Origin: a virus
DNA: 49,720 bases
IMG/VR virus record: IMGVR_UViG_3300032397_000020
Location: 1 to 49,720 of that record
Strand: one strand, 5' to 3'
Below the pieces are notes generated by a model, which saw nothing but the letters and a program-made list of their open reading frames with translations, searched no databases and was not told where the DNA came from. The stretch's first letter is position 1; the number at the start of each line of letters is the position of its first letter. This document shows, piece by piece, positions 12,665 to 39,581 of the stretch. The translations under genes and the position numbers were made by a program.

Positions 12665-13216
12665 ATGTTTGAAATTCTTACTCCGATGGATAAAGTAGAG
12701 CGCGTTTCCCGGGCAATTAATCCGGCAACTTTCATTGCTGCTCCTGGCATCTGGGCGTATCTTGATACCGATGGATCGATCAAGAACATCACCACCGCCA
12801 GTAACAACGTCATCAACAAACTCGTTATTGGCAGTGCGTCTGCCAGCGTTTACGAGTCTCATGATGTTGAGGTTGGCCGTATCGCAACCATGGAAAGCTT
12901 TGGCGTTCGTTGCAAGACCGATACCGGTTTTACAACTGCGCATGGCATTCCGGTTGTTGGTGATATGCTCGTTGTCAGCAGCAATGTTGCAACTCTCGGA
13001 AAGCTTATTCCCCTGCGTCTCTCGACACCAGGCACATATGAAATTGTTGCCCGCGTCGAAGAGTACAGCAGCACTCTGGGATACATCATTTTCCGAACAC
13101 TGTCACCCGTTATGGTAACCAATGCAAGCAGCACGTCGTCGTCTGTTTCTGTGTCAGTGAGCCCGTCAAGCTCTGCTAGCGGATCCACAAGTCCGTCAGC
13201 ATCAGCGTCATCATAA
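12665..13216 (+). CDS. Decoration-type capsid protein, paralogue 2 with short Ser-rich tail
   Basis: A 183-residue paralogue of its two neighbours over the first ~152 residues (F-E-I-L-T-P-M-D-K-V-E-R-V-S-R; Y-E-S-H-D-V-E-V-G-R). The C-terminal ~30 residues are a Ser-rich tail ([17 protein letters not shown]) of the same kind as in the giant fibre proteins further right. The ribosome site is AAAGG. If the barrel sits on the capsid, the tail would extend outward. It could be a substrate for the glycosyltransferases encoded downstream, which is a hypothesis. Confidence 0.82.
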   Translation: MFEILTPMDKVERVSRAINPATFIAAPGIWAYLDTDGSIKNITTASNNVINKLVIGSASASVYESHDVEVGRIATMESFGVRCKTDTGFTTAHGIPVVGDMLVVSSNVATLGKLIPLRLSTPGTYEIVARVEEYSSTLGYIIFRTLSPVMVTNASSTSSSVSVSVSPSSSASGSTSPSASASS

Positions 13217-13225
13217 GCCAACAAT

Positions 13226-13252
13226 GGGTTGATGGTTTATGACCATCAACCC
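13226..13252 (+). terminator. Strong hairpin between paralogues 2 and 3
   Basis: A perfect 10-bp stem (GGGTTGATGG / CCATCAACCC) with a 7-nt loop, followed by GATTT. Terminator-like in shape but with a weak T-tract; it may act as an attenuator or processing site. Confidence 0.5.
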
Positions 13253-13273
13253 GATTTAAGAAAGGAATACGCC

Positions 13274-13909
13274 ATGTTTGAAATTCTAACGCCGCTGGAT
13301 AAGGTTGAGCGCGTATCGCGTTCGATCGATCCGAGCACGTTTACGGCTGTTCCTGGCATATGGGCATACATTGCTGACGACGGATCTCTGGTGAATATTA
13401 TCACAGGTACGAATAAGCCGGTGAACAAACTTGTTATCGGCACAGCGTCGTCAAATCAATACGAATCCCATGATGTCATGGTCGGCAGAATCACGACAAT
13501 GGAAAGTTTTGGCGTGAGATGCAAAGTTGGATCAACTCTTTATACTGGAACTCCGGTGCTTGGCGACTATATGGTTGTCAGTAGCGCCTCCGGGACTGAA
13601 GGAAAGCTTATCCCTCTGCGCGTTTCTGCGATCGGAACATACGAAGTTGTCGCGAAGGTCGAAGAGGTTGATAATACTGTTGGGTTTATCGTCATTCGTA
13701 CATTGTCATCGACAATGAGCACAAATGCTGTAAGCGCATCAGCATCAACCAGCCCGTCAGGTTCGAGGAGTCCGTCTGGGTCTGCAAGCCCGTCTTCGTC
13801 GGCAAGTAGATCGACAAGCCCGTCTTCATCGGCAAGCGGTTCGTTAAGTCCGTCTGGTTCATTGAGCCCATCAGGTTCAGTAAGCCCGTCGGCATCAGCT
13901 AGCGCATAA
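13274..13909 (+). CDS. Decoration-type capsid protein, paralogue 3 with long Ser-rich tail
   Basis: The start at ATG 13274 is fixed by alignment to the two paralogues (M-F-E-I-L-T-P) and an AAAGGAAT site; an upstream ATG at 13229 would run through a hairpin. The product is 211 residues. Residues 1-152 are the shared beta-rich domain and about 153-211 are a Ser-Pro-Ser-x-Ser tail roughly twice as long as in paralogue 2. Some x positions are Gly or Arg. The series of none, 30 and 60 tail residues suggests stepwise repeat growth after gene duplication. Likely a capsid surface protein. Confidence 0.82.
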   Translation: MFEILTPLDKVERVSRSIDPSTFTAVPGIWAYIADDGSLVNIITGTNKPVNKLVIGTASSNQYESHDVMVGRITTMESFGVRCKVGSTLYTGTPVLGDYMVVSSASGTEGKLIPLRVSAIGTYEVVAKVEEVDNTVGFIVIRTLSSTMSTNAVSASASTSPSGSRSPSGSASPSSSASRSTSPSSSASGSLSPSGSLSPSGSVSPSASASA

Positions 13910-13916
13910 TATGGGC

Positions 13917-13943
13917 CGGGGTCGAGCCTTTTGATCGACCCCG
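13917..13943 (+). terminator. Hairpin after decoration paralogue 3
   Basis: A perfect 9-bp GC-rich stem (CGGGGTCGA / TCGACCCCG) with a 9-nt loop, followed by CTTAACT. It could partly insulate the capsid gene from upstream transcription, or protect mRNA ends. Confidence 0.5.
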
Positions 13944-13997
13944 CTTAACTGAGCGTATCAGTGACAATCTACACAAATTAAACGAGGAGTGACCATT

Positions 13998-15029
13998 ATG
14001 ATGAGAGATCTCTCGGCCATTCAGTTCAATGAAGCTTTCCTGGATAAGGTTGCTACCATTGAAGGCCAAGCCCAGCTCACCGAAGCCGGTCGTCAGTATG
14101 TGAAGACCGAACTGCAGGAAGCCGCGTTTTCACGCGCCATCATCCCGCAGGAACCGATCACGACTTCCGATTGCCAGCGCAACATCAACGACAACTCGCT
14201 GTATGTCATTCGTGACATCGAGCCTGATGCCGCTGCTGTCGGTGTTGACAACCTCGGCGAGCCCAACGGTAAGTACGTCAAGGGCGAACGTTACATCATT
14301 CCTGTCATCAACTTTTCGACCAACCGGTTCCAGATCACGGTCGAGGATCTTCGTGCCTACCAGTACAAGATCACGAAACGTATCGAGGACAAATCGGTTC
14401 CCGTGCTCGAGAAGCTTGAAGACAAATTCTTCCTTCGCCTGATCGGCGCCGCTGTTGCCGCTGCAACCGCCGGATCATGCAAAGCTGTCAAGTACACCGG
14501 TTCGCCCACGGTCGATCTGGAAATTTCGACCCGCGATATCGTCAAGATCAAGAACACCCTCGCCTCCGGTATCAACGGAAGCGATGCGAAGCGCAAAGAA
14601 GTCGGTTGCATCCTGATGTGTCAGGAAATTTTCGAAACCGCAGTCATTCTGCCGAGTGCCGGTGATGATTTCGGTAAAGACCGCGTTCTGAACGGGATTT
14701 CTTCGGACACCCTGTTCGGCACCAAGGTCGTTCGGACCATCAAGAGCGACATTCTTCCGCAGGGCCACATGTGGGCCTTCACGACCCCGGACTTCCTCGG
14801 TCACAACTTTTCGCTGGGCGATCCGAACTTCGAAATCAAGTCGAATTTCGGTCTCATCGAATGGCAGACCAAGGAATCGATTGCCATGGGTATCGGTAAT
14901 GCTCTGTCGGTTGCTCTCCTTACCCTCAAGGGTTCGGTTGCACCGGCGACAGCTACCGGCCTGGAAGTCAGTTCTTCCGGTACAGTCGATGCTGCGATCA
15001 CTGCTTATTACGCCTCCCTGAAGGTGTAA
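13998..15029 (+). CDS. Major capsid protein (probable HK97 fold)
   Basis: The start is ATG 13998 with GAGGAG 8 nt upstream. The 343-residue product has the position and character of a major capsid protein: a helical N-terminal arm (F-N-E-A-F-L-D-K-V-A-T-I-E-G, again like the shared tag), then a mixed alpha/beta body with I-I-P-V-I-N-F-S-T-N-R-F, a long helix (L-E-K-L-E-D-K-F-F), and a late motif I-E-W-Q-T-K-E-S-I-A-M-G-I-G. Codon use is more GC-rich and even than in its neighbours, as expected for a highly expressed gene. A strong intrinsic terminator follows at once. HK97 fold is inferred, not shown. Confidence 0.82.
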   Translation: MMRDLSAIQFNEAFLDKVATIEGQAQLTEAGRQYVKTELQEAAFSRAIIPQEPITTSDCQRNINDNSLYVIRDIEPDAAAVGVDNLGEPNGKYVKGERYIIPVINFSTNRFQITVEDLRAYQYKITKRIEDKSVPVLEKLEDKFFLRLIGAAVAAATAGSCKAVKYTGSPTVDLEISTRDIVKIKNTLASGINGSDAKRKEVGCILMCQEIFETAVILPSAGDDFGKDRVLNGISSDTLFGTKVVRTIKSDILPQGHMWAFTTPDFLGHNFSLGDPNFEIKSNFGLIEWQTKESIAMGIGNALSVALLTLKGSVAPATATGLEVSSSGTVDAAITAYYASLKV

Positions 15030-15059
15030 TCTGGTCAGTCTGGAGACTGTGTGTTACGC

Positions 15060-15092
15060 AAAGGCCTGGCCCCAACTGGGTCGGGCCTTTTT
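15060..15092 (+). terminator. Intrinsic terminator after the major capsid gene
   Basis: A 13-bp stem (AAAGGCCTGGCCC with GGGTCGGGCCTTT, two G-U pairs), a 5-nt loop and a T-run at the end. A second small hairpin (CAGTC/GACTG) lies just upstream at about 15036-15049. This is the clearest terminator of the head module. Confidence 0.85.
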
Positions 15093-15111
15093 AACTTAAA
15101 GCGGGGGACCT

Positions 15112-15603: not shown

Positions 15604-15644
15604 TTACAACGTTTACTTAAAGTAATACAAAAAGGAGTTCAATC

Positions 15645-16439: not shown

Positions 16440-16465
16440 AAACTTTGTCGAGATTGTATAATTGA

Positions 16466-16491: not shown

Positions 16492-16524
16492 GTTTCTAAG
16501 TATATTATAAAGAAGAGGTGGCCA

Positions 16525-18632: not shown

Positions 18633-19508
18633 ATGCCAAAAGTCAGTGTTATCCTGCCATCGAACAATGAAATGTTCCTTGAAAAAACTATTGATGATGT
18701 TTTCAAAAAAGCCCGGGGAGATATTGAAGTTATAGCGGTACTGGATGGATATTCAGCTCCCCCGCCTATCCCGCAGCGTGACAATCTCGTATTTATTCAC
18801 AAACTTGTCTCTGAGGGGATGCGCCCGGCAATCAACGATGCCGCAAAGATCGCCAAGGGTGAATTCCTCATGAAGCTCGATGCGCACTGCATGGTCGAGG
18901 AGGGGTTCGATCTTGTTCTGGCTAAGGACTGCGATTCTGATTGGATAGTGGTCCCTCGTCGTGTGAGTCTCGATGCTGAAAATTGGTGCATAGCCAATAC
19001 CGGTAAATCACCCGTCGACTATCACTATCTCACCTATCCGTATCTGAAGCCTGACGAGATCGGGATGCATGGGCAGGTATGGAATGAAAGAGCCCGCGAA
19101 CGAAAAGACATCCTGATCGATGACGAGATGTCATCTCAGGGGTCGTGCTGGTTTATGCGCAGAGATTACTTCTGGAAGTTCGGCGGAATGAGCTGCGTAG
19201 GCTACGGCAATTTCGTTCAAGAGGCTCAGCAGATAATGAACCGCTGCTGGCTATCGGGCGGCCAGGTCAAAATTAATAAAAACACATGGTACGCACATCT
19301 GCACAAAGGAAAAAAGTACGGTCGCGGATATTTCATTTCAAAGAATTCAATGATCAATGGAGCGGTTTATTCCGCCGATTTCTGGATGAATGATAAATGG
19401 GATCCTTCGTGGCCGGAAAAGATACACAATCTTGAATGGTTGATCGATAAATTCTGGCCGGTGCCAAGCTGGCCGCACAATTGGAAAGAGTTGCATAATA
19501 AAAAATGA
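18633..19508 (+). CDS. Glycosyltransferase family 2-like, DxH type
   Basis: A 291-residue GT-A fold enzyme (V-S-V-I-L-P-S-N-N-E at 4-13; V-I-A-V-L-D-G-Y at 33-40). The metal-binding motif is D83-A-H85 (K-L-D-A-H-C), the Asp-x-His type found for example in polypeptide GalNAc transferases, rather than the usual D-x-D. A region rich in W, G and R, with H-L-H-K-G-K-K-Y-G-R at about 226-235, probably forms the acceptor loop. It would move a sugar from a nucleotide donor onto an acceptor. It opens the cassette that ends at 28562 and overlaps the next gene by 4 nt (ATGA). Donor and acceptor are unknown. Confidence 0.85.
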   Translation: MPKVSVILPSNNEMFLEKTIDDVFKKARGDIEVIAVLDGYSAPPPIPQRDNLVFIHKLVSEGMRPAINDAAKIAKGEFLMKLDAHCMVEEGFDLVLAKDCDSDWIVVPRRVSLDAENWCIANTGKSPVDYHYLTYPYLKPDEIGMHGQVWNERARERKDILIDDEMSSQGSCWFMRRDYFWKFGGMSCVGYGNFVQEAQQIMNRCWLSGGQVKINKNTWYAHLHKGKKYGRGYFISKNSMINGAVYSADFWMNDKWDPSWPEKIHNLEWLIDKFWPVPSWPHNWKELHNKK

Positions 19509-20224
19509 TTCACGGAACCAAAGTAGGGATAGTAACCCGCTTCAAGGACCGTCTGAATTACATATCGCAAGCTCTTCCAACCTGGATCGCTTTAAGCGAA
19601 ATTGATCAGATTGTAATTGTGGATTGGGATTCCGAAGAAGACATTATCCCTTTTGTAAACAGTATCAATGATGAACGAATCAGCGTGATCCGGGTTCCCA
19701 ATCAAAAATATTGGGACCCGGGACGCGCTCATAATGTGGGCATACGCTTTGTCCAAACCGACTTGATATTTATAGTGGACTGCGATGTAAAAATTAATAC
19801 CCCGTGTTTTGAAAAAATAAATCCACTTCCAAATAATGAATTCTACATTCGATCGGATAAATGGAGAGGTGATCCACACAGGCTTCGTGGTCTATCTGGA
19901 ACGTGCATGTTCCAGAAAAAAATGTGGATTGAAATAAATGGATATGCGGAAAATAAAACCTCATACGGACTTGAAGATTTAGATTTTTATAATGAGGCTG
20001 TTAAGTGCGGATATCATCAGATAAAAGCTTTCACCGCAGACCAATTAACCCACATATCTCATGGATATGATATTCGTCAACAGCATTATAAAGACAAGTA
20101 TGATGATTTGAAAGATGCGATTAAAGTTGCAGAAAACCAATTAAGGTGCATGGAAGATGTTAGGTATATGGAAATGGTTAAAGCATCAATTTATAATAAT
20201 AATTGCTGGAAGGATATGCAATGA
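19505..20224 (+). CDS. Glycosyltransferase, GT-A with galactosyltransferase-like C-terminus
   Basis: A 239-residue glycosyltransferase. It starts V-G-I-V-T-R-F-K-D-R, then I-V-I-V-D-W-D-S (36-43) and a D-x-D motif D92-C-D94 (F-I-V-D-C-D). The C-terminal motif N-G-Y-x-E ... G-L-E-D-L-D-F (145-161) is typical of the chondroitin/galactosyltransferase C-terminal module. It overlaps both neighbours by ATGA. The acceptor is unknown; from context it may extend a sugar added by the preceding enzyme. Confidence 0.85.
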   Translation: MIHGTKVGIVTRFKDRLNYISQALPTWIALSEIDQIVIVDWDSEEDIIPFVNSINDERISVIRVPNQKYWDPGRAHNVGIRFVQTDLIFIVDCDVKINTPCFEKINPLPNNEFYIRSDKWRGDPHRLRGLSGTCMFQKKMWIEINGYAENKTSYGLEDLDFYNEAVKCGYHQIKAFTADQLTHISHGYDIRQQHYKDKYDDLKDAIKVAENQLRCMEDVRYMEMVKASIYNNNCWKDMQ

Positions 20225-20853
20225 AGCCAGAAGCGACAATTATATATTACACAGCAAATGCTGAGGATGAAAAATTAGAGAACCATGTTCGAGAGACCAT
20301 ATTAAGGAATAATAAAGGAAAATATCCAATCATATCCGTATCAAGGAAACCAATTGATTTTGGAAAAAATATTTGTGTTGGAGAAATTCCAATTTGTGAT
20401 GTTTCTGCTTTTAAACAATTATTAGCCGGGCTGTTAGCTGCAGAAACAAAATTCTGTATTGCTGCTGAATCCGATGTTCTTTATCCGCCTGAATATTTTA
20501 ATTTTATTCCACCGACCGATCGTGACGCCTATCGGTATAATAATCTCTGGATGTTCACATCGTATATCAGCAAAGGCAATCAAAATAAATTTTGGAAAAA
20601 GGAGTTTAGCGAAGGCGCCCAGATGGTTGGAAGAGAATATTGGATTGAAAGAATACAGGTTGGAATAGAGCGTGGCGACGGAAGACACATTTTCCCAACC
20701 AGAGATCAATTTAATTGGAACTCTATCAATCCGGTAATTACTATTAAAACGGGAATGGGATTAAGGCCAAGGTCGGGGCATACACCCGAATCATCTTATG
20801 TTATTCCATTTTGGGGATCAACTGATTATTTAAGAAAGAAAATTTGGGGATGA
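20221..20853 (+). CDS. Putative glycosyltransferase, YYT-N/FG-N-CVG family, copy 1
   Basis: A 210-residue protein. It is one of four related sequences in this cassette, with I-I-Y-Y-T-A-N at 7-13, I-I-S-V-S-R-K-P-I-D-F-G at 37-48, N-I-C-V-G at 50-54, then a metal-type motif A-E83-S-D85-V-L-Y-P-P-E-Y-F-x-F-I-P-P, and a C-terminal F-W-G-S-T-D-Y. The fold looks GT-A-like, with E-S-D standing in for D-x-D. It is about 65-70 percent similar by eye to the next gene, an evident recent tandem duplication. It overlaps both neighbours by 4 nt. I recognise the GT-like layout but not a named family. Confidence 0.75.
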   Translation: MKPEATIIYYTANAEDEKLENHVRETILRNNKGKYPIISVSRKPIDFGKNICVGEIPICDVSAFKQLLAGLLAAETKFCIAAESDVLYPPEYFNFIPPTDRDAYRYNNLWMFTSYISKGNQNKFWKKEFSEGAQMVGREYWIERIQVGIERGDGRHIFPTRDQFNWNSINPVITIKTGMGLRPRSGHTPESSYVIPFWGSTDYLRKKIWG

Positions 20854-21500
20854 AAAAGAATCCAGAAGCAACAATTATTTATTATACAGCAAACGTCGAA
20901 GACGAATATGTCGAATCGTTTGTCAAAAATGCAATATTAAAACATAATAAAGGAAAATATCCAATCATATCCGTATCGCGAAAGCCAATTGATTTTGGAG
21001 AAAATATTTGTGTTGGCGAGACCGAAGTCAGTTACATGTCTGCATTTAAACAATTGCTAATTGGTCTCAGGGCTGCTAATACAAAGTTTTGTATTGCGGC
21101 TGAGTCGGATGTTCTTTATCCTCCCGAATATTTTGATTTTATTCCACCGGTGGACGATCAGGCTTATCGAGGTACAAATATATGGGTTTTTCACTCTTGG
21201 ATAGGAAAAGGAAATAGGAATCTATTTTGGAAGAAGGCGTTCACAGAGGGGGCGCAAATTATAGGAAGAGAGTTTTGGATTGATAAATTGAAATGGAGTA
21301 TCGATAATGGTGGAAAGGTAGCGTTCAAAAGCAGGGATGACTTTTCATTCAAAAATAAAAATCCAATTGTTACAATAAAAACCGGCCACGGCATGAAGAA
21401 ATGGACAAAATATTCTGACATTTCTTCATATCAAATTCCATTCTGGGGATCAACTGATTTTCTCAGAAAGAAAATATGGGGAACAAATGAAATTAAGTAA
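20850..21500 (+). CDS. Putative glycosyltransferase, same family, copy 2
   Basis: A 216-residue tandem duplicate of the preceding gene, sharing I-I-Y-Y-T-A-N, I-S-V-S-R-K-P-I-D-F-G, N-I-C-V-G-E, A-A-E-S-D-V-L-Y-P-P and P-F-W-G-S-T-D. Even the DNA is similar over AAAGGAAAATATCCAATCAT. Differences cluster in the middle (N-I-W-V-F-H-S-W-I-G), the probable acceptor region. The start is ATG 20850, overlapping the previous stop. Possibly a second transferase with changed acceptor specificity. Confidence 0.75.
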   Translation: MKKNPEATIIYYTANVEDEYVESFVKNAILKHNKGKYPIISVSRKPIDFGENICVGETEVSYMSAFKQLLIGLRAANTKFCIAAESDVLYPPEYFDFIPPVDDQAYRGTNIWVFHSWIGKGNRNLFWKKAFTEGAQIIGREFWIDKLKWSIDNGGKVAFKSRDDFSFKNKNPIVTIKTGHGMKKWTKYSDISSYQIPFWGSTDFLRKKIWGTNEIK

Positions 21501-21984
21501 AGGTTGGGGAACACACATGCCAGTTCTTATCAAAGCTATTCAATCATCCAAAGGCCCGGTTCTTGAATTGGGGACAGGGCTCTATAGCACTCCGTTGATG
21601 CACTGGTTATGTTTTGACGAGAAGCGCCCACTCGTATCTTATGAACATGATCCGAAATATTTTAAATACAACCACCAATACACTGCTGATTTTCACAAAG
21701 TAATATTGGTTGAAGAATGGTCAAAGATAAATATCAATGATACGTTTTGGAGTGTTGTTCTCATTGACACCGATGCCGATGGATCTGTCAGAAAAGAAAT
21801 GGTAAAAACTGTTGCCAATAACGCTCAGTATATTGTCATGCACGACACCAACCCATATCTCGACAGCCACTACCATTACAGTGAAGTGTTCCCACTTTTT
21901 AAATTTCGTTTTAATTATACCAAGGCGAGCCCCAACACTTCCATAGTAAGTAATTTTGTGGACGTTTCAAACTTTATAATCTAA
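21487..21984 (+). CDS. SAM-dependent methyltransferase-like protein (short)
   Basis: A 165-residue Rossmann-type protein with V-L-E-L-G-T-G-L-Y-S-T (25-35) as the SAM-binding loop, an acidic strand end (S-Y-E-H-D-P-K at 51-57, the ribose-binding type) and V-V-L-I-D-T-D-A-D-G (90-99). Length is short for a class I methyltransferase, so substrate-binding parts may be minimal. It overlaps the preceding gene by 14 nt. In this cassette it could methylate sugars, as in capping of glycans. Substrate unknown. Confidence 0.75.
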   Translation: MKLSKGWGTHMPVLIKAIQSSKGPVLELGTGLYSTPLMHWLCFDEKRPLVSYEHDPKYFKYNHQYTADFHKVILVEEWSKININDTFWSVVLIDTDADGSVRKEMVKTVANNAQYIVMHDTNPYLDSHYHYSEVFPLFKFRFNYTKASPNTSIVSNFVDVSNFII

Positions 21985-21998: not shown

Positions 21999-22619
21999 AT
22001 GGATGTTAATAAATTCATCATTGATAAATACAACGTACACGATCTTCCAGAAGGCTGCCAGCCTATTCAATTGCCAATTGCAAGAGAAGACTTATCCGCA
22101 TTATTTTGTGAGCTTGGCTACAAAGTTGGTGCAGAAATAGGCGTAGAGTCTGGAAGGTTTTCCAAGTCTCTTTGCGAAAATAATCCCGGCGTGAAGCACT
22201 ATGCGGTTGATGCGTGGCAAGCATATAAGGGATATCGTGATCATGTAAATCAGGAAAAGCTTGATAGGTTTAAGAGGGATGCGGAGATCCGCCTCGCAGA
22301 ATATAATTGCACAATAATACAGGCGTTTAGTCTTGATGCCGTCAAACAATTTGAAAACAATTCCCTCGATTATGTTTATATCGACGGGAATCACGATTTT
22401 CAAAATTGCTGCAACGACATTGTAGAGTGGGGGAAAAAAGTTCGACCCGGTGGAATTATATCCGGGCACGATTTTGATCCGCATCGAAAAGGTAAATCGT
22501 ACATTCATGTCAACGAATGCGTGACCGCATATTGCTTAGCCTACGATATTAAAACGTGGTTTTTAACCTCAAACAAAACAGAAGGGTTATCAAGATCATT
22601 CTTGTGGGTAAAATCATGA
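21999..22619 (+). CDS. Class I SAM methyltransferase, copy 1
   Basis: A 206-residue methyltransferase of the type found in sugar and glycan modification. Its motifs are E-I-G-V-E-S-G-R-F (46-54) as SAM loop, Y-I-D-G-N-H-D-F (127-134) and W-G-K-K-V-R-P-G-G-I-I-S-G-H-D-F (about 142-158). It is a paralogue of the next gene. AGAAAGGAAATAG precedes the ATG. The Y-I-D-G-x-H motif is typical of the Methyltransf_24-like families, where the acidic and His residues can bind a metal. Substrate not known. Confidence 0.85.
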   Translation: MDVNKFIIDKYNVHDLPEGCQPIQLPIAREDLSALFCELGYKVGAEIGVESGRFSKSLCENNPGVKHYAVDAWQAYKGYRDHVNQEKLDRFKRDAEIRLAEYNCTIIQAFSLDAVKQFENNSLDYVYIDGNHDFQNCCNDIVEWGKKVRPGGIISGHDFDPHRKGKSYIHVNECVTAYCLAYDIKTWFLTSNKTEGLSRSFLWVKS

Positions 22620-23251
22620 ACACAACACAATACATTCTTGAAAAGTATGGGAAGACGGATTATCAGGGAGAGATGCCGATCCAACTTGATATACTTCGGG
22701 ATGACCTTGCCGGCTTATTTAATGAATTAAATCTCAATGTTGGTGTTGAGATTGGTGTAGCCGGAGGAAGGTTTTCTCAAATTCTTCTTGAGGGCCATCC
22801 AAACATGCAGTTGACCGGAGTTGATCCGTATTTGTCGTATGATGAGTATTTTGATTTTAAGACGCAGGAGATTATAAGCGGATTCATACCAAGTATGAAA
22901 AAAAGAATTGATAAGCATAAAGACAGATTCAAATTGATTCAGAAAACAAGCCTTGAGGCTGTAAAAGACTTTAAGGACAACAGTTTGGATTTTGTCTACA
23001 TTGATGGAAACCACTTGTTCCAATATGTCGTCAATGATCTTGCTGAATGGGGCAAGAAAATCAAATCGGGCGGAATAATATCAGGACACGATTTTGAAGT
23101 TAGAAGAAAGCCTGATTGCATACACGCAGAGGAGGTCGTCCGTGGATGGACGGCTGCATATGATATCAAACCTTGGTTTATAACAAAAAGGGCGAGAAGG
23201 TATAACCAAGACGGAAACGTCCATAGATCTTTTTTTTGGGAGAAAATATGA
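22616..23251 (+). CDS. Class I SAM methyltransferase, copy 2
   Basis: A 211-residue paralogue of the preceding gene with E-I-G-V-A-G-G-R-F at 45-53, F-V-Y-I-D-G-N-H-L-F, W-G-K-K-I-K-S-G-G-I-I-S-G-H-D-F and a matching C-terminus (A-Y-D-I-K-P-W-F, then R-S-F-F-W). The start is ATG 22616 (ATGA overlap); upstream in-frame codons belong to the preceding gene's region. Tandem duplication with divergence in the central helix suggests different methylation positions or substrates. Confidence 0.85.
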   Translation: MNTTQYILEKYGKTDYQGEMPIQLDILRDDLAGLFNELNLNVGVEIGVAGGRFSQILLEGHPNMQLTGVDPYLSYDEYFDFKTQEIISGFIPSMKKRIDKHKDRFKLIQKTSLEAVKDFKDNSLDFVYIDGNHLFQYVVNDLAEWGKKIKSGGIISGHDFEVRRKPDCIHAEEVVRGWTAAYDIKPWFITKRARRYNQDGNVHRSFFWEKI

Positions 23252-23949
23252 ATGACATTACAGTTGTTTACTATACGTCAAATTTTGCAAATCCCCCTTT
23301 CACTGAAGCTGTTCGTGCAAGATTGTTGGAGTCTATTGGTGATACTCCACTTATTAGCGTGTCTCAAAAGCCAATGGATTTTGGACATAACATATGCGTT
23401 GGGGATATTGGACGATCGCAGGTTAATATATACAAACAGGTCAACATTGGGATCAAGGCCGCAAAAACAAAATATGTAGCATTGTGCGAAGATGATTGCC
23501 TGTATCCGCCAAGCCATTTCACATGCTTCCGGCCAAAGGATGATGAGTTTGCATACAACATGAACAGGTGGGGAGTTTATACGTGGACCAAGCCGCCGAT
23601 ATTTTCAAACAAGAATAGAATTTCTCTTAGCCAGTGTATTGCTAATAGAGAATTCATGATTGAGTGTTCGGACGAAAGGTTTGCAAAATTCCCTGATGAG
23701 TCCAAAATACCATTGCATCACTTTGCTGAATTTGGAAAATACGAAAAATGGATGGATATCAAAATCCGTAAAAAGGTTGAGTTTAATTCTCCTGATCCTA
23801 CTATAATATTCTCTCATCCCGACGCTATTGGATATTCGGGGTTGGGGGTCAGAAAGCGTCATGGCGATCTTAAGGCAAATGAATTCCCAATGTGGGGCAC
23901 AGCAGAAGAGGTGTTAAAAAAATATTGGGGAACTGAAAGATTGATATGA
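23248..23949 (+). CDS. Putative glycosyltransferase, YYT-N family, copy 3
   Basis: A 233-residue diverged member of the family of copies 1 and 2: V-V-Y-Y-T-S-N, I-S-V-S-Q-K-P-M-D-F-G-H-N-I-C-V-G, then C-E-D-D-C-L-Y-P-P-S-H-F as the metal-type motif, and P-M-W-G-T-A-E-E near the end. The motif E-D-D replaces E-S-D. The C-terminal half has a distinct H-x-A-E-F-G-K-Y-E region. It overlaps both neighbours by ATGA. Confidence 0.75.
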   Translation: MNDITVVYYTSNFANPPFTEAVRARLLESIGDTPLISVSQKPMDFGHNICVGDIGRSQVNIYKQVNIGIKAAKTKYVALCEDDCLYPPSHFTCFRPKDDEFAYNMNRWGVYTWTKPPIFSNKNRISLSQCIANREFMIECSDERFAKFPDESKIPLHHFAEFGKYEKWMDIKIRKKVEFNSPDPTIIFSHPDAIGYSGLGVRKRHGDLKANEFPMWGTAEEVLKKYWGTERLI

Positions 23950-26910: not shown

Positions 26911-26945
26911 TATCAACTTCAATGGTGGCAAGGGAGGTTTTGAAA

Positions 26946-28562
26946 ATGGATTTGTCAGTCGTTATTCCAGCGCGGAACGAAGAGTTCCTTCAAAAAACAA
27001 TTGATGCTGTGCTTGATGCCGCAGAGGCGCAAACTGAGGTAATCGCGGTTCTTGATGGGTATTGGCCAGAGCCTAAGCTTATAGAACGTCCCGGGCTTCG
27101 GACAATACATTATGATCAATCTATAGGCCAGCGCGCCGCAACCAACGCAGGCGTGAAAGCCAGCGATGCGAAATACATCATGAAGCTCGACGCCCACTGC
27201 GCGATCGACAAGGGCTTCGATGTCAAAATGATTCAGGAAATGCATGACGATTGGACCATGATCCCTCGCATGTATAACCTGCATGTGTTTGATTGGGAAT
27301 GCTCCAAATGCAAAAACAGAACCTACCAGGGGCCCAAGCCGGCCAAATGCGCCAAGGATGGGTGCGACAATATCACCGACTTTGAAAGAATTATTGTGTG
27401 GACTCCTCGGTGGAATCGGATGTCTGACTTTGCTCGCTTTGACAGCACTCTTCACTTTCAGTATTGGGGTGATTATAAGAGAAGGCCAGAGGCACAGGGG
27501 GACATTGCCGATACTATGAGTCAGATCGGCGCCTGCTGGATGATGGATCGCAAAAGGTATTGGGAGCTTGATGGCCTTGATGAAAAGCATGGCTCCTGGG
27601 GCCAGATGGGCACGGAAATTTCTTGTAAGACTTGGCTGTCCGGTGGTCGGCAAGTAGTCAACAAGAAAACGTGGTTCAGCCATCTGTTTCGTACTCAGCC
27701 TGGTTTTGGATTCCCATACCCAAATCCCGGGGTCAATAAAGCTCGAGAGTATTCTCGAAAACTATGGATTGAAAACAAATGGCCAAAGGCAAAATATCAA
27801 CTTCCATGGCTTATTGAAAAATTCGGACCGGTTCCAGACTGGCCAGATAAGAGCAACAAGGCGATTAAAAAGGGAATTGTTTACTACACAGATAATCTTT
27901 GCGAAGAGAGGATTCTTGAGGTCGGGCAAAGAAATCTGAGGCATATTTGTAGTGATTTTGACATCGTTTCGGTGTCACTCAAGCCGATGAAGATGGGCAG
28001 AAACTTTGTAATGCCGCTTGAAAGGGGCATTTTGACAATGTTTAAGCAGATTCTTAAGGGTCTTGAGGAGTCGACGGCCGACATTGTCTTTCTATGCGAG
28101 CACGATATGCTGTATCACCCGTCTCATTTTGATTTTGTTCCGCCCAGAGACGACGTGTATTATTATAACGAAAATACATGGAAAGTAGATGCTAAGACTG
28201 GGCAAGCCTTATTTTATTACTGCAAGCAAACTTCCGGGTGCGTCGCGTATCGAAAATTGCTTGTGGAACATTATCGAAAGAGGGTGGCAAGGGTTGAGGA
28301 AAAAGGGTATGATAGGAATATGGGCTTTGAAGCCGGGACACACTCTTTTCCAAGAGGCGTCGACAATTTCAAAGCTGAAAAGTATTTCTCGGAAATACCC
28401 AATATTGACATTCGACATTCGACAAATTTAACCCGGAGTCGATGGAGACAGGATCAGTTCAGGAATCAAAAGAGTTGCCTTGGCTGGACAATGGCTGATG
28501 AAGTCCCTGGGTGGGGTAGAACAAAAGACAGGTTTGATGAGTTTTTAAAACAAGTTGGATAG
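26946..28562 (+). CDS. Bifunctional glycosyltransferase (DxH type plus YYT-N family)
   Basis: ATG 26946 with GGGAGG upstream gives 538 residues. Residues 1-300 resemble the first gene of the cassette: V-V-I-P-A-R-N-E-E, V-I-A-V-L-D-G-Y, L-D82-A-H84-C, plus a zinc-knuckle insertion at about 119-141 (C-S-K-C ... C-A-K-D-G-C). Residues from about 308 belong to the YYT-N family (I-V-Y-Y-T-D-N, V-S-V-S-L-K-P, C-E-H-D-M-L-Y-H-P-S-H-F, W-G-R-T-K). So two transferase modules that are separate elsewhere in the cassette are joined here, perhaps to act one after the other on the same acceptor. It is the last cassette gene and is followed by a terminator. Confidence 0.85.
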   Translation: MDLSVVIPARNEEFLQKTIDAVLDAAEAQTEVIAVLDGYWPEPKLIERPGLRTIHYDQSIGQRAATNAGVKASDAKYIMKLDAHCAIDKGFDVKMIQEMHDDWTMIPRMYNLHVFDWECSKCKNRTYQGPKPAKCAKDGCDNITDFERIIVWTPRWNRMSDFARFDSTLHFQYWGDYKRRPEAQGDIADTMSQIGACWMMDRKRYWELDGLDEKHGSWGQMGTEISCKTWLSGGRQVVNKKTWFSHLFRTQPGFGFPYPNPGVNKAREYSRKLWIENKWPKAKYQLPWLIEKFGPVPDWPDKSNKAIKKGIVYYTDNLCEERILEVGQRNLRHICSDFDIVSVSLKPMKMGRNFVMPLERGILTMFKQILKGLEESTADIVFLCEHDMLYHPSHFDFVPPRDDVYYYNENTWKVDAKTGQALFYYCKQTSGCVAYRKLLVEHYRKRVARVEEKGYDRNMGFEAGTHSFPRGVDNFKAEKYFSEIPNIDIRHSTNLTRSRWRQDQFRNQKSCLGWTMADEVPGWGRTKDRFDEFLKQVG

Positions 28563-28640: not shown

Positions 28641-31600
28641 GTGGCAACGGTAAAAGTACAGGTAGTTGGTGGCGGCGGTCACGGCGGAGGAACTGGTGGC
28701 AACACTTCCGGTGGAGGTGGTGGCGCTGGTCAATTGCAGTACAACGCAACCTATACTGTTACGGCTGGAAACAAGACCGTTACCATCGGTGCCGGATCTC
28801 CCCGATCCTCAACAAACGCCCAAGTTGGTGATAGTTCGGTTTTTGATACCTTAACCTCTGTCGGTGGTGGTTGCGGTGGTACTGGTGCTGCCGGTACTAA
28901 TGGTGCGAGCGGTGGTGGTGGTGCTGGATCAAATGCTACGGCGCGAGCGGGTGGAACTGGAACCAACGGCAACAATGGTGGATCTAACAATGTTGACGCA
29001 GATAGGCCTGCTGGTGGTGGTGGAGGTGCTGGTGCAGTTGGTGCCAACGCTACCGGTACTGCGGCTGGCAACGGTGGTGTTGGTGTAAATACACCCGCTA
29101 TTAATGGAACCACTTATGCTGGTGGCGGTGGCGGTGCTAGGACGGGAACTGGTGCCACCGATGGTACTGGGCAAAATGGTGGTGGCAATGGTGTATTAAA
29201 CGGAATCGGTGGTGACGCATCTGCTAATACGGGATCGGGTGGTGGTGGTGCCGGATCAAACTCAGCTACCGCATATCAGGGTGGTGCTGGCGGTTCTGGT
29301 ATTGTAATAATCAGGTACGTTACCAATGATTTTGGTCCATGTACCGGTGGTGATATAACCACAAGTGGCAATGAGACAATACACACCTTCACGGCGACCG
29401 GGGTGTTTGGTGTTGTTTTAGCAAGCGCCTCCATGAGCCCGTCTGCATCAGCAAGTCCGTCGGCATCCACAAGTCCATCGGCGTCTAGAAGTCCGTCTGC
29501 ATCTACGAGCCCATCAGCATCTACGAGCCCATCATCATCTGCAAGCAGATCAATAAGCCCATCAGCATCAACGAGTCCATCATCGTCTGCAAGTGCATCA
29601 ATAAGCCCATCAGCATCTACGAGTCCTTCTGCGTCAACAAGTCCATCGTCTTCCGCAAGCGCATCAATCAGCCCGTCAGCCTCAACGAGTCCATCATCCT
29701 CCGCAAGTGCTTCGATTAGCCCTTCAGCATCTACGAGCCCCTCGGCCTCTACGAGTCCATCATCATCCGCAAGTGCATCAATCAGCCCGTCCGCCTCAAC
29801 AAGCCCATCAAGCTCGGCAAGTGCATCGGTCAGCCCATCATCCTCAACAAGCCCTTCGGCGTCTGCGAGCCCAACGGGGGCATCAACAAGTCCATCTGCA
29901 TCAACAAGCCCGTCAAGTTCGGCAAGCGCATCAATAAGCCCATCTGCATCAACAAGCCCATCAAGCTCGGCAAGCTCCTCAGTTAGCCCATCAGCGTCGA
30001 CGAGCCCATCAAGCTCCTCCAGCTTGTCATTGAGCCCATCCGCCTCTATCAGCCCATCTTCATCTACAAGCGCGTCAGTGAGCCCGTCAGGCTCTATTAG
30101 CGCTTCAATAAGCCCTTCTGCGTCAACAAGCCCGTCCGGATCAGTGAGCGCGTCAATAAGCCCTTCTGCGTCGACAAGCCCGTCGTCTTCTGCGAGCCTA
30201 TCGCTAAGTCCATCAGCCTCTATTAGCCCATCAGCGTCAACAAGCCCGTCAAGCTCGGCAAGCGCGTCTCTTAGTCCGTCAGCGTCGTTGAGCCCATCAA
30301 GCTCGGCAAGCTCCTCTATAAGCCCATCAGCTTCTTTGAGCCCATCAAGTTCAACAAGCGCCTCTATAAGCCCATCAGCTTCTTTGAGCCCATCAAGCTC
30401 AACAAGTGCATCTATAAGCCCATCAGCCTCGATAAGCCCATCCTCTTCATCAAGCGCTTCTGTAAGCCCGTCAGCATCAATCAGCCCATCCAGTTCGACG
30501 AGCCCGTCAGGTTCCGCAAGCGCTTCGGCTAGCCCGTCAGCGTCTACCAGCCCATCCAGTTCGTCAAGTGCATCAATCAGCCCATCTGCATCAACGAGCC
30601 CATCGAGCTCGGTAAGCGCATCAATCAGCCCGTCGGCTTCAACGAGCCCATCCAGTTCGGCAAGTGCGTCTATGAGTCCGTCTGCCTCGATAAGCCCTTC
30701 ATCATCGATCAGTGCATCAATCAGCCCGTCTGCTTCAACGAGTCCGTCGAGTTCATCGAGCGCGTCAATCAGCCCATCAGCTTCAACAAGCCCATCAAGC
30801 TCGGCAAGCGCATCAATAAGTCCATCAGCGTCTGTAAGCCCATCAAGCTCGGAAAGCGCATCCATAAGCCCATCGGCATCTGTAAGTCCATCTGGTTCGA
30901 TAAGCGCCTCTATCAGCCCATCTGCATCAACGAGCCCTTCGAGTTCCGAAAGCGCGTCGATTAGCCCATCGTCATCAATCAGTCCGTCTGGATCGACCAG
31001 CCCATCAGCGTCTGCGAGCCCAACGGGGGCATCAACCAGCCCATCAGCATCAATGAGTCCGTCATCTTCTGAAAGCTCATCGATTAGCCCATCCGGATCA
31101 GTGAGCGCGTCAAAAAGCCCATCATCTTCGTTATCACCGTCTGGAAGTTTGAGCCCAAGTAGTTCTATTAGCCCAAGTCATTCAGTCTCTCCATCAGCAT
31201 CTACATCTCCTAGTAGAAGCATAAGTCCAAGTTCCAGTGTAAGCGAGAGTCCGTCCCGTAGCCCGTCAGCATCAGAGTCAGCATCAATATCACCAAGCGC
31301 ATCAGCCTCACCGGGGCCCGGATTTGAAGTTTATACGAGAGGGTACTATTCCAGCTTGCCATCAACTCCGGCCGACCTGTCGACAACCTATACGTCTCAG
31401 GAAGTTATCGACGTATCTACTGAAGACGACATATATGTATGCCAGGAGGCGTCTGGAAGATATTGTATTCATCAATTTAAAAATTGGGTAGATAGTGAAA
31501 TTAATTGCATATTAACGTGTAAATTGAAATGTTCATTGGCCCCATCAAGCTCCGCAGTTTATCTTCAGGCATACAATTATAATTCAGCTTTGTGGGAAAC

Positions 31601-31727
31601 CAAGGACAGTAATAATATCGCAGCAACAGATACCAAGTTTACTTTAACAGCAACAATGCTTGACCTGACGAATTATAAGGATATGAACAATGTTATGTCT
31701 TGCCGGGTTTATCAATATATTTCTTAG
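28641..31727 (+). CDS. Giant surface/fibre protein: Gly-rich domain plus Ser-Pro repeat
   Basis: The start is GTG 28641 after AAAGGTAG; the product is 1028 residues. Residues 1-230 are a poly-glycine domain (G-G-G-G-x-G-G clusters ending [13 protein letters not shown]), typical of phage fibre tips and adhesin-like domains. From about 264 to 890 runs a strict alternating Ser-x repeat, mostly S-P-S-A/S-S-y. Residues about 893-1028 are a globular C-terminal domain (V-Y-T-R-G-Y-Y-S ... C-R-V-Y-Q-Y-I-S). The repeat is likely extended and non-globular and rich in possible O-glycosylation sites. A receptor-binding or coat-forming role is inferred. Confidence 0.82.
29427..31310 (+). repeat. SPSxSy coding repeat 1 (18-nt unit)
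   Basis: About 1.9 kb of an 18-nt-based coding repeat. The Ser before Pro is nearly always AGC/AGT and the others mostly TCN, while codons vary in the third position. The x/y residues are mainly A, S, T and I. A longer 16-residue superunit ([16 protein letters not shown]) occurs in the first third. Confidence 0.9.
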
Positions 31728-36412: not shown

Positions 36413-36422
36413 AGGGTAAATT

Positions 36423-39400
36423 ATGGCTGGAAGAATTTATTGTGCATTCAAGGTTGGAGATCAGGAAGTTGCTCCTGGGAAAGAGTATAACAGGCATTGG
36501 GATGGAATGCCTGTTGAGCTTTTTTATGAAGATGATTGGCAAGTTCCGTTCGAAGTTGTGTTTGGTGGAAATTCGAAGATGCACTCAATCTATACCATGG
36601 TTGAGTTAAATAAAACGCAGGCAGATTTAATAGAAGACTATCTCAATCCAACACACGACGAAGATGATCCTGGAAAAAAAATAAAAGACGGCGCATTATC
36701 AAAATCAGATTACAGAATAAGAAAGAAAACTTTAAATTTACAATTACTGGAATCATCTACCAATGACGTTGGACTTGTTTCAAGATTAAGAACAAAAGAT
36801 GTTGCTGTTCCCACAATAGATTTAAAACATTATAATAAAAAACAATTTGAAGATTTATTCTTCGATTCTACCGATCGACCAATAGATTCCCCAGTTATTG
36901 AAGACAACAATGCAATTACATCAGGATCTGCCACAATTGGTGCTGCGCAAACATATGCTACATGGACAGCCGCCTATGCTGACCTTGGAAATAATACCGG
37001 AGATATAACTCTTACACAGATTGGTGCAGTGGCCTTTACAGCGGCGGCTACTGGGTCGACAACACTTGGCGGATACACAATAACAAACACAAGTAATTAC
37101 GACCATCAGGGCGATCCGACAAGAACAACCAACCTTGCAACTGTCAACTTTAACGGAAATGCAATACGGATCGAGTTTGAGGGAGCGGGAACCGTAATAT
37201 ACAATTTGCTGTATTTTAAAAGAGGAACCAGCGGATCAACAACCACATCCGCAATTTTTAAAATACAAACTATTACGACGGCGTTTGATCTATACATTGA
37301 AAATTGTATTGAAGATAGTGATGCGAAAAGCGGAGCCTTTATTGGATCAATAAGTGGAGTTCCCGTTGCGCGTATCAAAAACTGCGTAGCTTGGAATCTC
37401 GGAAACGCCACGGTTGGCGGCAATGGAATATCAGCATTTAACGGGGCCTTCAATGCTGACAGTGTTATAGAAAATTGCACATTTTATAGTATTGTTGGAT
37501 ACGGAATAAACGCGTTTAGTGACGCGTTTACAATAAACAGAACCGTATGTATTGGTTGTAGTTTGGGAGATTTTAGATTAACCGAAAGTCTGACGAATTT
37601 TAATAAGTGCGCGAGTTCTGATGCAACCGGTTCAGAAGCTGGATTACAAAACCTTGTTGCGGCCAATATATTCGTTTCAACAAGTTCGGCAAGCTCATCA
37701 TTTTTGGATATTGTAAAGACTGAGGGGTTGGGGAGAGCGGGTGATTCCACATCGTATTTGACTGGAAACGATACAGACGTAAGGGGGAGAGCGAGGCCAG
37801 ACCCAAACGGATTTTACTCGATAGGTGCGACTGAATTATTGGCCGTTGCTTCGTCAAGCGCATCTCCATCAGTAAGCCCATCAGCGTCAAGAAGCCCAAG
37901 TTCCAGCCAATCATTATCGATAAGCCCATCGGCATCTGTGAGTCCTTCCGCATCAACAAGCCCAAGTAGTAGCGCATCTGCATCCATAAGCCCATCAGCG
38001 TCTACGAGTCCAAGTAGCAGTGTGTCGGCTTCTATCAGCCCATCGGCGTCAATTAGCCCCAGCAGTAGCATATCAGCATCCATCAGTCCGTCGGCATCTA
38101 CAAGCCCAAGCAGTAGCGCTTCAGCATCTATAAGTCCATCGGCATCTACAAGTCCAAGTTCGAGCGCATCATCATCAATAAGTCCATCGGCATCCGTTAG
38201 TCCATCTGCGTCAACAAGCCCGAGCAGTAGTGCTTCGTCATCAATAAGCCCATCAGCATCACGAAGTCCAAGTAGTAGCGCATCAGCATCTGTCAGCCCG
38301 TCAGCCTCGACAAGCCCTTCGGCGTCTGTAAGCCCCAGTAGCAGCGTCTCACTGTCAACGAGCCCATCAGCGTCTACAAGCCCCAGTAGTAGCGTATCAA
38401 GATCAACGAGCCCATCGGCGTCAAGGAGCCCGAGTAGTAGCGCGTCGGCATCGGTTAGCCCATCAGCGTCAATAAGTCCGAGCAGCAGCGTGTCATCATC
38501 GACAAGTCCATCTGCATCTACAAGCCCCAGTAGTAGCGCTTCAGCATCAAGAAGTCCGTCAGCATCTACCAGTCCCAGCAGCAGCGCGTCTTCATCCACA
38601 AGTCCCTCGGCGTCAATTAGCCCATCAGCGTCTACCAGTCCAAGTAGCAGCGCGTCATCATCAATAAGCCCGTCGGCATCTATTAGCCCGAGTAGCAGCC
38701 AGTCAGCGTCAATAAGCCCGTCGTCATCAATAAGCCCAAGCGGAAGCGAATCACCATCCATTAGCCCATCATCATCGACAAGCCCGAGTAGTAGCGAGTC
38801 GACTTCTGTTAGCCCGTCATCATCGGATAGTCAATCTATTAGCCCATCCTCTTCTCAGAGTCCGTCATCATCTTGGTCTCCATCCTCGTCTGCAAGTCCA
38901 AGTTCGAGTGTGTCGCAGACATTGAGCCCATCATCTTCTTACAGCCCATCTGGATCATTGTCTCCAAGCACATCAAGGAGTCCGTCATCCTCTCGAAGCC
39001 GATCGCTAAGTCCATCTTCATCGATTAGCAAATCAATAAGTCCATCGTCCTCCGTAAGCCTGTCGCCATCCGTTAGCCCATCAGCTTCCAAAAGCCGTTC
39101 TATAAGCCCATCAATGTCGGAAAGCAAATCAGCAAGCCCTTCATCGTCAGCAAGCCGTTCAAGAAGCCCATCTATTTCTGTCAGCCCATCAACCAGCCCA
39201 TCATGGTCAAAAAGCAGATCAGCAAGCCCATCGGGATCTATAAGTCCATCGGCATCCACAAGCCCATCGGTAAGCGAATCCGGATCGACAGGGCCATCGC
39301 CATCATTAAGCCCATCTCACTCGGCTAGTCCGTCGCAACCCATTGGCGATCTTGAAAGAAGAGTGGAAAATATTGAGAACATACTTACTGACAACAAGCC

Positions 39401-39581
39401 GATTTATATTAATAGTAACGGGCATTGGGAAGAGTTTGATCTTTGGGAATTTGAACCAACAGCGGGGCCTGGGGGAAACCTGGAGGAGAGAGTCGCTTAC
39501 ATTGAAAGCCTATTAAGAACCCAAAAACCGATCTATATAAATATCAGCGGACACTTACAAGAAATATATCTCCAACCATGA
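36423..39581 (+). CDS. Beta-helix protein with Ser-Pro repeat and two KPIYIN modules
   Basis: A 1052-residue protein. Residues 1-150 are a mixed N-terminal part (possible virion attachment). About 155-475 look like a right-handed parallel beta-helix, with N-C-x-A-W and E-N-C-T-F-Y repeats and the closing D-V-R-G-R-A-R-P-D-P-N-G-F-Y-S-I-G-A-T-E seen in many polysaccharide-binding or -cutting beta-helices. No catalytic site is obvious. The Ser repeat covers about 477-972. The C-terminus has two copies of L-E-x-R-V-x-x-I-E-x-x-L ... K-P-I-Y-I-N ... G-H-x-x-E. Probably a tail fibre or depolymerase-type surface protein. Confidence 0.83.
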   Translation: MAGRIYCAFKVGDQEVAPGKEYNRHWDGMPVELFYEDDWQVPFEVVFGGNSKMHSIYTMVELNKTQADLIEDYLNPTHDEDDPGKKIKDGALSKSDYRIRKKTLNLQLLESSTNDVGLVSRLRTKDVAVPTIDLKHYNKKQFEDLFFDSTDRPIDSPVIEDNNAITSGSATIGAAQTYATWTAAYADLGNNTGDITLTQIGAVAFTAAATGSTTLGGYTITNTSNYDHQGDPTRTTNLATVNFNGNAIRIEFEGAGTVIYNLLYFKRGTSGSTTTSAIFKIQTITTAFDLYIENCIEDSDAKSGAFIGSISGVPVARIKNCVAWNLGNATVGGNGISAFNGAFNADSVIENCTFYSIVGYGINAFSDAFTINRTVCIGCSLGDFRLTESLTNFNKCASSDATGSEAGLQNLVAANIFVSTSSASSSFLDIVKTEGLGRAGDSTSYLTGNDTDVRGRARPDPNGFYSIGATELLAVASSSASPSVSPSASRSPSSSQSLSISPSASVSPSASTSPSSSASASISPSASTSPSSSVSASISPSASISPSSSISASISPSASTSPSSSASASISPSASTSPSSSASSSISPSASVSPSASTSPSSSASSSISPSASRSPSSSASASVSPSASTSPSASVSPSSSVSLSTSPSASTSPSSSVSRSTSPSASRSPSSSASASVSPSASISPSSSVSSSTSPSASTSPSSSASASRSPSASTSPSSSASSSTSPSASISPSASTSPSSSASSSISPSASISPSSSQSASISPSSSISPSGSESPSISPSSSTSPSSSESTSVSPSSSDSQSISPSSSQSPSSSWSPSSSASPSSSVSQTLSPSSSYSPSGSLSPSTSRSPSSSRSRSLSPSSSISKSISPSSSVSLSPSVSPSASKSRSISPSMSESKSASPSSSASRSRSPSISVSPSTSPSWSKSRSASPSGSISPSASTSPSVSESGSTGPSPSLSPSHSASPSQPIGDLERRVENIENILTDNKPIYINSNGHWEEFDLWEFEPTAGPGGNLEERVAYIESLLRTQKPIYINISGHLQEIYLQP
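37855..39340 (+). repeat. SPSxSy coding repeat 3 (AGY-rich variant)
   Basis: About 1.5 kb of coding repeat. Here many Ser-Ser-Ser blocks are written AGC AGT AGC instead of TCN TCN TCN, so the DNA differs from repeats 1 and 2 although the protein is alike. This points to independent expansion. Confidence 0.9.

What the first reader, a model, noticed from the sequence alone, without database searches (positions are those of the whole stretch)
12665..39581. Six proteins with a mucin-like Ser-Pro repeat around a phage glycosylation cassette
Two decoration paralogues, a neck-type protein and three giant surface proteins carry strict alternating Ser-x repeats (unit S-P-S-A/S-S-y), together about 2100 residues, nearly half of them Ser. 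Between them lie 11 genes for glycosyltransferases, methyltransferases and a radical SAM fusion. Two of the transferases have the D-x-H motif known from polypeptide GalNAc transferases, which modify Ser/Thr in mucins. I infer a self-encoded O-glycosylated, mucin-like virion coat. It could bind host or mucosal surfaces, or shield the particle.
Basis: partly seen in the sequence, partly recalled or inferred. Interest (0 to 1): 0.88.

Follow-up and report, generated by a model that had tools for sequence, protein, structure and literature searches.

The report
Mucin-like glycosylated phage coat proteins
An uncultured phage carries long alternating-serine tails on its shell and fibre proteins, next to enzymes resembling those that put sugars on animal mucins, and many unrelated uncultured phages carry the same pair, which suggests a widespread and so far undescribed way for phages to sugar-coat themselves.

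Summary
Six ORFs carry strict Ser-x repeats: 2,126 residues, 55% Ser, longest run 748 (shuffles reach at most 34). A 12-ORF cassette lies among them: glycosyltransferases, methyltransferases and a radical-SAM fusion. The D-x-H enzyme GTfus gives a confident AlphaFold model (pLDDT 94). Its best PDB matches, by fold and by profile, are polypeptide GalNAc-transferases, and it keeps their DxH, WG...E and H.FR residues in 61 of 61 relatives. The decoration paralogues match phage capsid decoration proteins, weakly.

In the capsid-protein clade, relatives with S-P-S repeats carry the cassette; repeat-free ones have no family-2 glycosyltransferase. One relative with poly-Ser tails has a different sugar cassette at the same locus. 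Beyond the clade, 61/78 and 51/64 loci found by the two D-x-H enzymes have such repeats nearby (controls 1/120). Of 29 long contigs found by the repeat alone, 20 encode the enzyme (controls 0/30). The enzymes have no match in 50,697 GenBank phage records. A Saccharibacteria chromosome carries the pair too.

Best reading: a self-encoded, mucin-like O-glycosylation system for virion surface proteins. Glycosylation itself, the sugar and the benefit are inferred, not shown.

The parts
12164..12619 (+). Decoration paralogue without repeat tail (151 aa)
   Evidence: homologous to the next two ORFs (alignment A5)
12665..13216 (+). Decoration paralogue 1, C-terminal S-x tail of 28 residues
   Evidence: AF2 model pLDDT 84 for the whole protein with the tail at about 50; Foldseek top hits are capsid decoration proteins at weak E-values of about 0.01-0.07
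13229..13909 (+). Decoration paralogue 2, C-terminal S-x tail of 58 residues (likely ATG at 13274)
13989..15029 (+). Major capsid protein
   Evidence: 29% identity over 92% of its length to the annotated major capsid protein of Salmonella phage Arash
17110..18621 (+). Conserved virion-module protein (neck-type by position) with an internal 42-residue S-x insert at residues 27-68
   Evidence: Ser kept 21/22 but non-Ser 12/22 against the L004 orthologue
18633..19508 (+). GT1: GT-A glycosyltransferase with DAH motif, pp-GalNAc-T-like
   Evidence: PF00535; profile matches pp-GalNAc-Ts over residues 2-254, E 3e-6
19505..20224 (+). GT2: glycosyltransferase (Glyco_tranf_2_2 / Glyco_transf_7C)
20203..20853 (+). 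GTa: member of a GT-like family without Pfam match
20844..21500 (+). GTb: paralogue of GTa
21487..21984 (+). MT1: methyltransferase-like by inspection, no Pfam match
   Evidence: conserved in relatives of the cassette
21999..22619 (+). MT2: Methyltransf_24
22556..23251 (+). MT3: Methyltransf_24
23236..23949 (+). GTc: paralogue of GTa/GTb
23946..24533 (+). MT4: class I methyltransferase
24530..25258 (+). Glyco_tranf_2_4 glycosyltransferase
25249..26910 (+). Radical SAM - Glyco_tranf_2_4 fusion
26922..28562 (+). GTfus: N-terminal pp-GalNAc-T-like GT-A domain (DAH motif) fused to a GTa-like domain; likely ATG at 26946
28641..31727 (+). SRP1: Gly_rich_2 N-terminal domain, 624 residues of S-x repeat, C-terminal domain of about 110 aa
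33542..36412 (+). SRP2: 882 residues of S-x repeat in 956 aa, C-terminal coiled-coil-like KPIYIN motif
36423..39581 (+). SRP3: N-terminal domain of about 475 aa, 492 residues of S-x repeat, two C-terminal KPIYIN motifs
41395..43965 (+). Tail sheath; marks the far side of the insertion locus compared across relatives
   Evidence: synteny

Best explanation
This is a phage-encoded protein O-glycosylation system. Strict Ser-x (S-P-S-A-S-x) segments are appended to or inserted in virion surface proteins: capsid decoration proteins, a neck-region protein and large fibre-like proteins. They act as dense acceptor tracts. The two D-x-H enzymes (GT1 and the N-terminal domain of GTfus), related to polypeptide GalNAc-transferases, work in the host cytoplasm, probably on the freshly made proteins, and place the first sugar on Ser hydroxyls. 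The remaining transferases, methyltransferases and the radical-SAM fusion extend and cap the glycan; this outer part is the most variable between phages. The product would be an extended, hydrated, mucin-like brush on head and fibres. Its likeliest use is to shield the particle and to hold adhesin or lectin domains away from it. Shown: the repeats, the enzyme fold (predicted) and catalytic residues, and the genetic linkage. Inferred: the sugar transfer, its order, and the benefit.
For: Enzyme: the GTfus model (pLDDT 94) matches pp-GalNAc-T structures at E 1.9e-14, and nearly all of the top 50 of 350,542 chains are pp-GalNAc-Ts. A profile of 61 relatives puts pp-GalNAc-Ts in the top 15 places, best E 4e-14. 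DxH, WG, E224 and H-x-F-R are invariant in 61/61. GT1 matches pp-GalNAc-T over its length. Linkage inside the capsid clade: S-P-S repeats and the GT1/GTfus cassette are present together or absent together, and repeat-free relatives have no PF00535 hit in records of 84-208 kb. The apparent exception G028 (poly-Ser tails) has another sugar cassette at the same place, with glycosyltransferases, a sulfotransferase, a methyltransferase and a cupin. Linkage outside it: 61/78 and 51/64 against 1/120 (Fisher p 4e-34 and 6e-32). Repeat-first, 41/112 in short stretches against 0/120 and 20/29 whole contigs against 0/30. Acceptor: Ser is kept 21/22 while x is kept 12/22 in the neck insert. Ser codons are freely mixed among synonyms while Ser itself never changes over runs of hundreds of residues. 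Relatives use Thr-rich or P/T-rich tracts at the same sites. The decoration fold is supported, weakly.
Against: No biochemical data exist. The repeats could be glycosylated by host enzymes, or not at all. Of 29 long repeat contigs, 9 lack the D-x-H enzyme and 8 of those have no PF00535 hit; four examined are fragments, two with other sugar genes near the contig edge. GT-first loci without repeats exist (17/78 and 13/64). In the capsid tree the repeat-plus-cassette rows largely fall on one side of a weak split, so that clade alone gives few independent events. E. coli K4 chondroitin polymerase also scores well by fold, so polysaccharide synthesis is not excluded by fold alone.
Confidence: 0.78

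Rival explanations
1. The cassette makes or remodels a host surface polysaccharide or O-antigen (receptor masking, superinfection exclusion), and the repeats are unmodified flexible spacers.
For: Phage GT2 enzymes often modify host glycans (established knowledge). K4 chondroitin polymerase is among the structural matches.
Against: The cassette sits inside the virion-structure module, between the neck-type gene and the sheath gene. Repeat-free relatives lack it. The repeat-enzyme linkage extends to unrelated phages and to a Saccharibacteria chromosome. Ser is selectively kept.
Confidence: 0.1
2. The cassette glycosylates phage DNA (hypermodified bases).
For: Phage glycosyltransferases that modify DNA are known, as cited in PMC12619734.
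Against: No PF00303 enzyme (thymidylate synthase / pyrimidine hydroxymethylase superfamily) in the window or in 8 relatives, several of them 160-208 kb. The closest solved structures act on polypeptides. Linkage is to Ser repeats.
Confidence: 0.03
3. The Ser-x tracts are silk- or stalk-like structural spacers, or expansions by slippage with no modification. The linkage to GTs reflects one mobile island that happens to carry both.
For: Repeats are tandem and vary in length between near-identical phages (dec2 tail 58, 84 and 112 residues). GTfus often lies directly upstream of a repeat gene, as expected of an island.
Against: Repeats also sit in genes far from the cassette (decoration, neck, sheath), at N-termini, C-termini or internally. 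Relatives swap in poly-Thr, P/T-rich or poly-Ser tracts, which share the hydroxyl and not an obvious fold. The kind of tract follows the kind of cassette in the one contrasting case seen.
Confidence: 0.09

Closest known systems
Eukaryotic polypeptide GalNAc-transferases (CAZy GT27) and mucin PTS domains
   Same: GT-A fold and catalytic motifs (DxH, WG..E, H-x-F-R); Ser/Pro-rich tandem acceptor tracts
   Different: No ricin-type lectin domain detected (only PF00535 and, in 8 members, PF13641 among 61 members); sequences start directly at the first GT-A strand with no membrane segment seen; GTfus carries a second, GTa-like domain; donor sugar unknown; repeats mostly Ser where mucins have much Thr
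Serine-rich repeat glycoproteins (GspB, Fap1, SraP, L. reuteri SRRP) with GtfA/GtfB and accessory Sec
   Same: Alternating-Ser repeats glycosylated in the cytoplasm by a two-protein initiating pair plus variable extending GTs (PMC6973325); here too a D-x-H pair plus variable partners
   Different: Those use GtfA/GtfB with DUF1975 and SecA2/SecY2 export to the cell wall; none of these appears in the cassette, and the products here are virion proteins
Glycosylated mycobacteriophage virions (Che8, Rita and relatives)
   Same: Phage-encoded glycosyltransferases linked to covalent glycans on capsid proteins forming a glycan shield (PMC11256854)
   Different: No Ser-x mucin-like tracts or D-x-H pair described in what I could read; GT1 and GTfus have no match in 50,697 GenBank phage records at E 1e-5
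Staphylococcal Ser-Asp repeat proteins with SdgA/SdgB
   Same: Dipeptide Ser repeats modified by dedicated glycosyltransferases (PMC3794999 abstract)
   Different: Bacterial cell-wall adhesins; repeats Ser-Asp; enzymes not compared here

Membership tests
Polypeptide GalNAc-transferase (GT27) | GT-A catalytic fold closest to pp-GalNAc-T | tested here: met
   GTfus; GT1, by sequence profile only
Polypeptide GalNAc-transferase (GT27) | DxH metal site and conserved catalytic W/E and H-x-F-R residues | tested here: met
   Invariant in 61/61 GTfus relatives; GT1 has D-A-H, E and H but AHLH in place of H-x-F-R
Polypeptide GalNAc-transferase (GT27) | C-terminal ricin-type lectin domain | tested here: not met
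   No such Pfam hit in 61 members; the C-terminal domain of GTfus is a GTa-like domain
Polypeptide GalNAc-transferase (GT27) | UDP-GalNAc transfer to Ser/Thr of polypeptides | not testable with these tools
   Needs an enzyme assay
Accessory-Sec serine-rich repeat glycoproteins | Long alternating-Ser repeats | tested here: met
   compare SLSNSVSMSE repeats in PMC6973325
Accessory-Sec serine-rich repeat glycoproteins | GtfA/GtfB initiating pair and SecA2/SecY2 export in the locus | tested here: not met
   Pfam on all 12 cassette ORFs shows GT-A families, methyltransferases and radical SAM only
Phage virion glycosylation | Phage-encoded GT genes linked to virion proteins | tested here: met
Phage virion glycosylation | Covalent glycan on virion proteins | not testable with these tools
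   Needs mass spectrometry; no isolate is known to me
Capsid decoration protein | Fold of known decoration proteins | tested here: inconclusive
   Leading Foldseek hits are chains of phage capsid structures read as decoration/cement proteins (Pam3, Sf11, TW1, BB1, T1), probability up to 1.00, but E only 0.01-0.07 and TM-score about 0.5

The most novel reading that the evidence does not exclude
Uncultured phages, and some Patescibacteria, hold a distinct prokaryotic branch of mucin-type protein O-glycosylation: enzymes sharing fold and catalytic residues with animal pp-GalNAc-transferases, acting on modular Ser-x tags that move freely among virion or cell-surface proteins. This would be a general sugar-coating system that cultured phages have not shown, and a possible relative of the source of eukaryotic mucin-type glycosylation.
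Probability: 0.4. Interest if true: 0.92.

Novelty: new variant of a known kind. Interest (0 to 1): 0.82.

Why it matters
Virion glycosylation is documented in only a few cultured phages. Here a defined enzyme pair and a recognisable acceptor tag are linked across 93 non-redundant repeat genes near the enzymes in uncultured phages, and in at least one bacterial chromosome. The tag makes the substrate predictable from sequence, so the question of how common sugar-coated phages are becomes testable. It would also offer prokaryotic relatives of mucin-type transferases with a simple peptide acceptor.

Tried and rejected
Literature searches for this repeat, for phage Ser-rich repeats with GTs, and for phage or bacterial pp-GalNAc-T-type O-glycosylation found no description; the held library is open-access only, so this is not proof of absence.

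tblastn with a repeat protein against GenBank phages found nothing, but low-complexity filtering makes that search blind to the repeat, so I do not use it.

DNA modification was checked through PF00303 and not supported.

The long antisense ORFs over the repeats (e.g. 29276-30865, 529 aa) are read as a by-product of the repeat codons, not genes; no separate test was made.

An alternative genetic code (TAG=Q) did not open much longer frames in the right end of the window. Rfam found no RNA family, and no tRNA was found.

A plain Ser/Thr-rich window measure separates cases from controls poorly (64/78, 55/64 and 50/120), so only strict alternation was used.

Moraphages (PMC12619734) were looked at as a possible lineage with glycosyltransferases; no link to this window was tested.
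Full report
What is there. The window is a 49.7 kb virus fragment that holds the head, neck and sheath part of a contractile-tailed phage. It has terminase (2443), a weak match to head maturation proteases (8691), major capsid protein (13989), sheath (41395) and probable tube (43984, by position). The capsid protein is 29% identical to the annotated major capsid protein of Salmonella phage Arash. Six ORFs carry strict Ser-x repeats, 2,126 residues in all, 55% Ser, far beyond shuffled expectation. The repeats are tails on two of three decoration paralogues, an insert in a conserved neck-region protein, and the bulk of three large fibre-like proteins. Twelve ORFs between 18633 and 28562 encode glycosyltransferases, methyltransferases and a radical-SAM fusion.

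The enzymes. GT1 and the N-terminal half of GTfus carry D-A-H. With no template, AlphaFold gave a confident GTfus model. Nearly all of its 50 best PDB matches are polypeptide GalNAc-transferases, with K4 chondroitin polymerase the only other kind. A profile search by sequence agrees, with pp-GalNAc-Ts in the top 15 places. DxH, W-G, a glutamate and H-x-F-R, as in pp-GalNAc-Ts, are invariant in 61 relatives. GT1 matches the same structures over its length, more weakly, and has AHLH in place of H-x-F-R. No lectin domain was detected. The C-terminal half of GTfus and three other ORFs (GTa, GTb, GTc) form a family without Pfam or PDB-sequence matches.

The acceptors. The tail-less part of the decoration protein models well, and its leading fold matches are chains of phage capsid structures that I read as decoration proteins, at weak E-values. 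In the neck insert Ser is kept at 21 of 22 positions while other positions keep 12 of 22. Ser codons are mixed among synonyms while Ser itself is unbroken over hundreds of residues. At corresponding places relatives use Thr tracts or P/T-rich tracts, and two carry such inserts in the sheath. What is kept is the hydroxyl residue, not an obvious fold.

Co-occurrence in the capsid clade. I collected 33 viral contigs with a related capsid protein and read the larger ones in full. Those with S-P-S repeats and a readable downstream region all carry GT1 and/or GTfus. Repeat-free ones (G013, G016, G018, G021) carry none and have no PF00535 hit at all. In G018, G017, G019 and G020 the neck-type gene is followed closely by the sheath region; G013 and G021 have other large genes there. 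G028 has poly-Ser tails and a different cassette at this locus, with GT, sulfotransferase, methyltransferase and cupin genes. The tree shows clustering, so this clade gives only a few independent events.

Co-occurrence outside it. Starting from the enzymes, 61 of 78 GT1 loci and 51 of 64 GTfus loci have a strict run of at least 24 residues within 10 kb, against 1 of 120 control stretches (control stretches are about half as long, and the two enzyme sets share some contigs). Starting from a DNA pattern for the repeat, 41 of 112 stretches and 20 of 29 longer contigs encode the enzyme, against 0 of 120 and 0 of 30 for the reversed pattern. Contigs already found by the enzymes were left out of the 29. 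Of the nine without the enzyme, eight have no PF00535 hit; four were read: two have other sugar genes near the contig edge, and two are T4-like fragments with repeats in several structural proteins and none of the cassette on the contig. In 93 of 116 loci the enzyme family occurs twice, and in 31 of 93 non-redundant cases the repeat gene begins within about 500 bases downstream of an enzyme gene. Repeat proteins start with varied domains, some of them lectin-like LamG.

Beyond phages. Cellular matches are almost all in Patescibacteria assemblies. One Saccharibacteria contig has MurC-type ligase, MurJ and TatC genes beside a full cassette and an S-P-S-A protein, so the pair also exists in a bacterial chromosome. 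It is rare there (4 of 287 genomes; 3 of 31).

Mechanism and limits. The best reading is cytoplasmic O-glycosylation of Ser-x tags by the D-x-H pair, with extension and methylation by the rest, giving a mucin-like brush on the virion. The sugar, the order of steps and the benefit are not shown. Shielding and holding adhesins away from the particle are the likeliest uses; mucosal binding has no specific support. All the phage genomes compared are uncultured and mostly fragments.

Noticed in passing
L496 393-17390: A Saccharibacteria contig with MurC-type ligase, MurJ and TatC genes carries GT1, methyltransferases, GTa-like and GTfus genes and an S-P-S-A repeat protein: a chromosomal version of the system.
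   Followed up: partly
window 36314-36412 and 39330-39581; G025 end of ORF 130042-137913: A short C-terminal module, coiled-coil-like plus KPIYIN/KPIHIN...EE, ends SRP2 (one copy), SRP3 (two) and the giant repeat protein of G025 (two): a possible attachment or trimerisation tag.
   Followed up: no
window 20203-21500, 23236-23949, 27876-28562: A four-copy GT-like family (motif SVS.KP..FG.NICVG) with no Pfam or PDB-sequence match, also fused to the D-x-H domain in GTfus.
   Followed up: partly
L065/L066 (G028) 12676-28705: A relative with poly-Ser (S/N/L/E) tails has a different sugar cassette with a sulfotransferase and a cupin at the same locus: tail type and cassette type change together.
   Followed up: partly
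G025 139725-142475 and G009 102965-105574: Ser- or Thr-rich inserts of 42 and 16 residues inside the tail sheath protein.
   Followed up: no
window repeats: Ser before Pro is almost always AGC/AGT, other Ser mostly TCN: codon family depends on position in the unit, probably a trace of how the repeats expanded.
   Followed up: no
window 44800-49720: After the probable tube gene only small ORFs, mostly on the minus strand, including a glutaredoxin-like one at 46751-47020 (by inspection).
   Followed up: partly
window 29276-30865, 34738-35868, 37814-38761 (minus strand): Long antisense ORFs over the repeats, read as a by-product of the repeat codons.
   Followed up: no
G051 and G042: T4-like fragments have S-P-S-A tracts in several structural proteins without the cassette on the contig.
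   Followed up: partly
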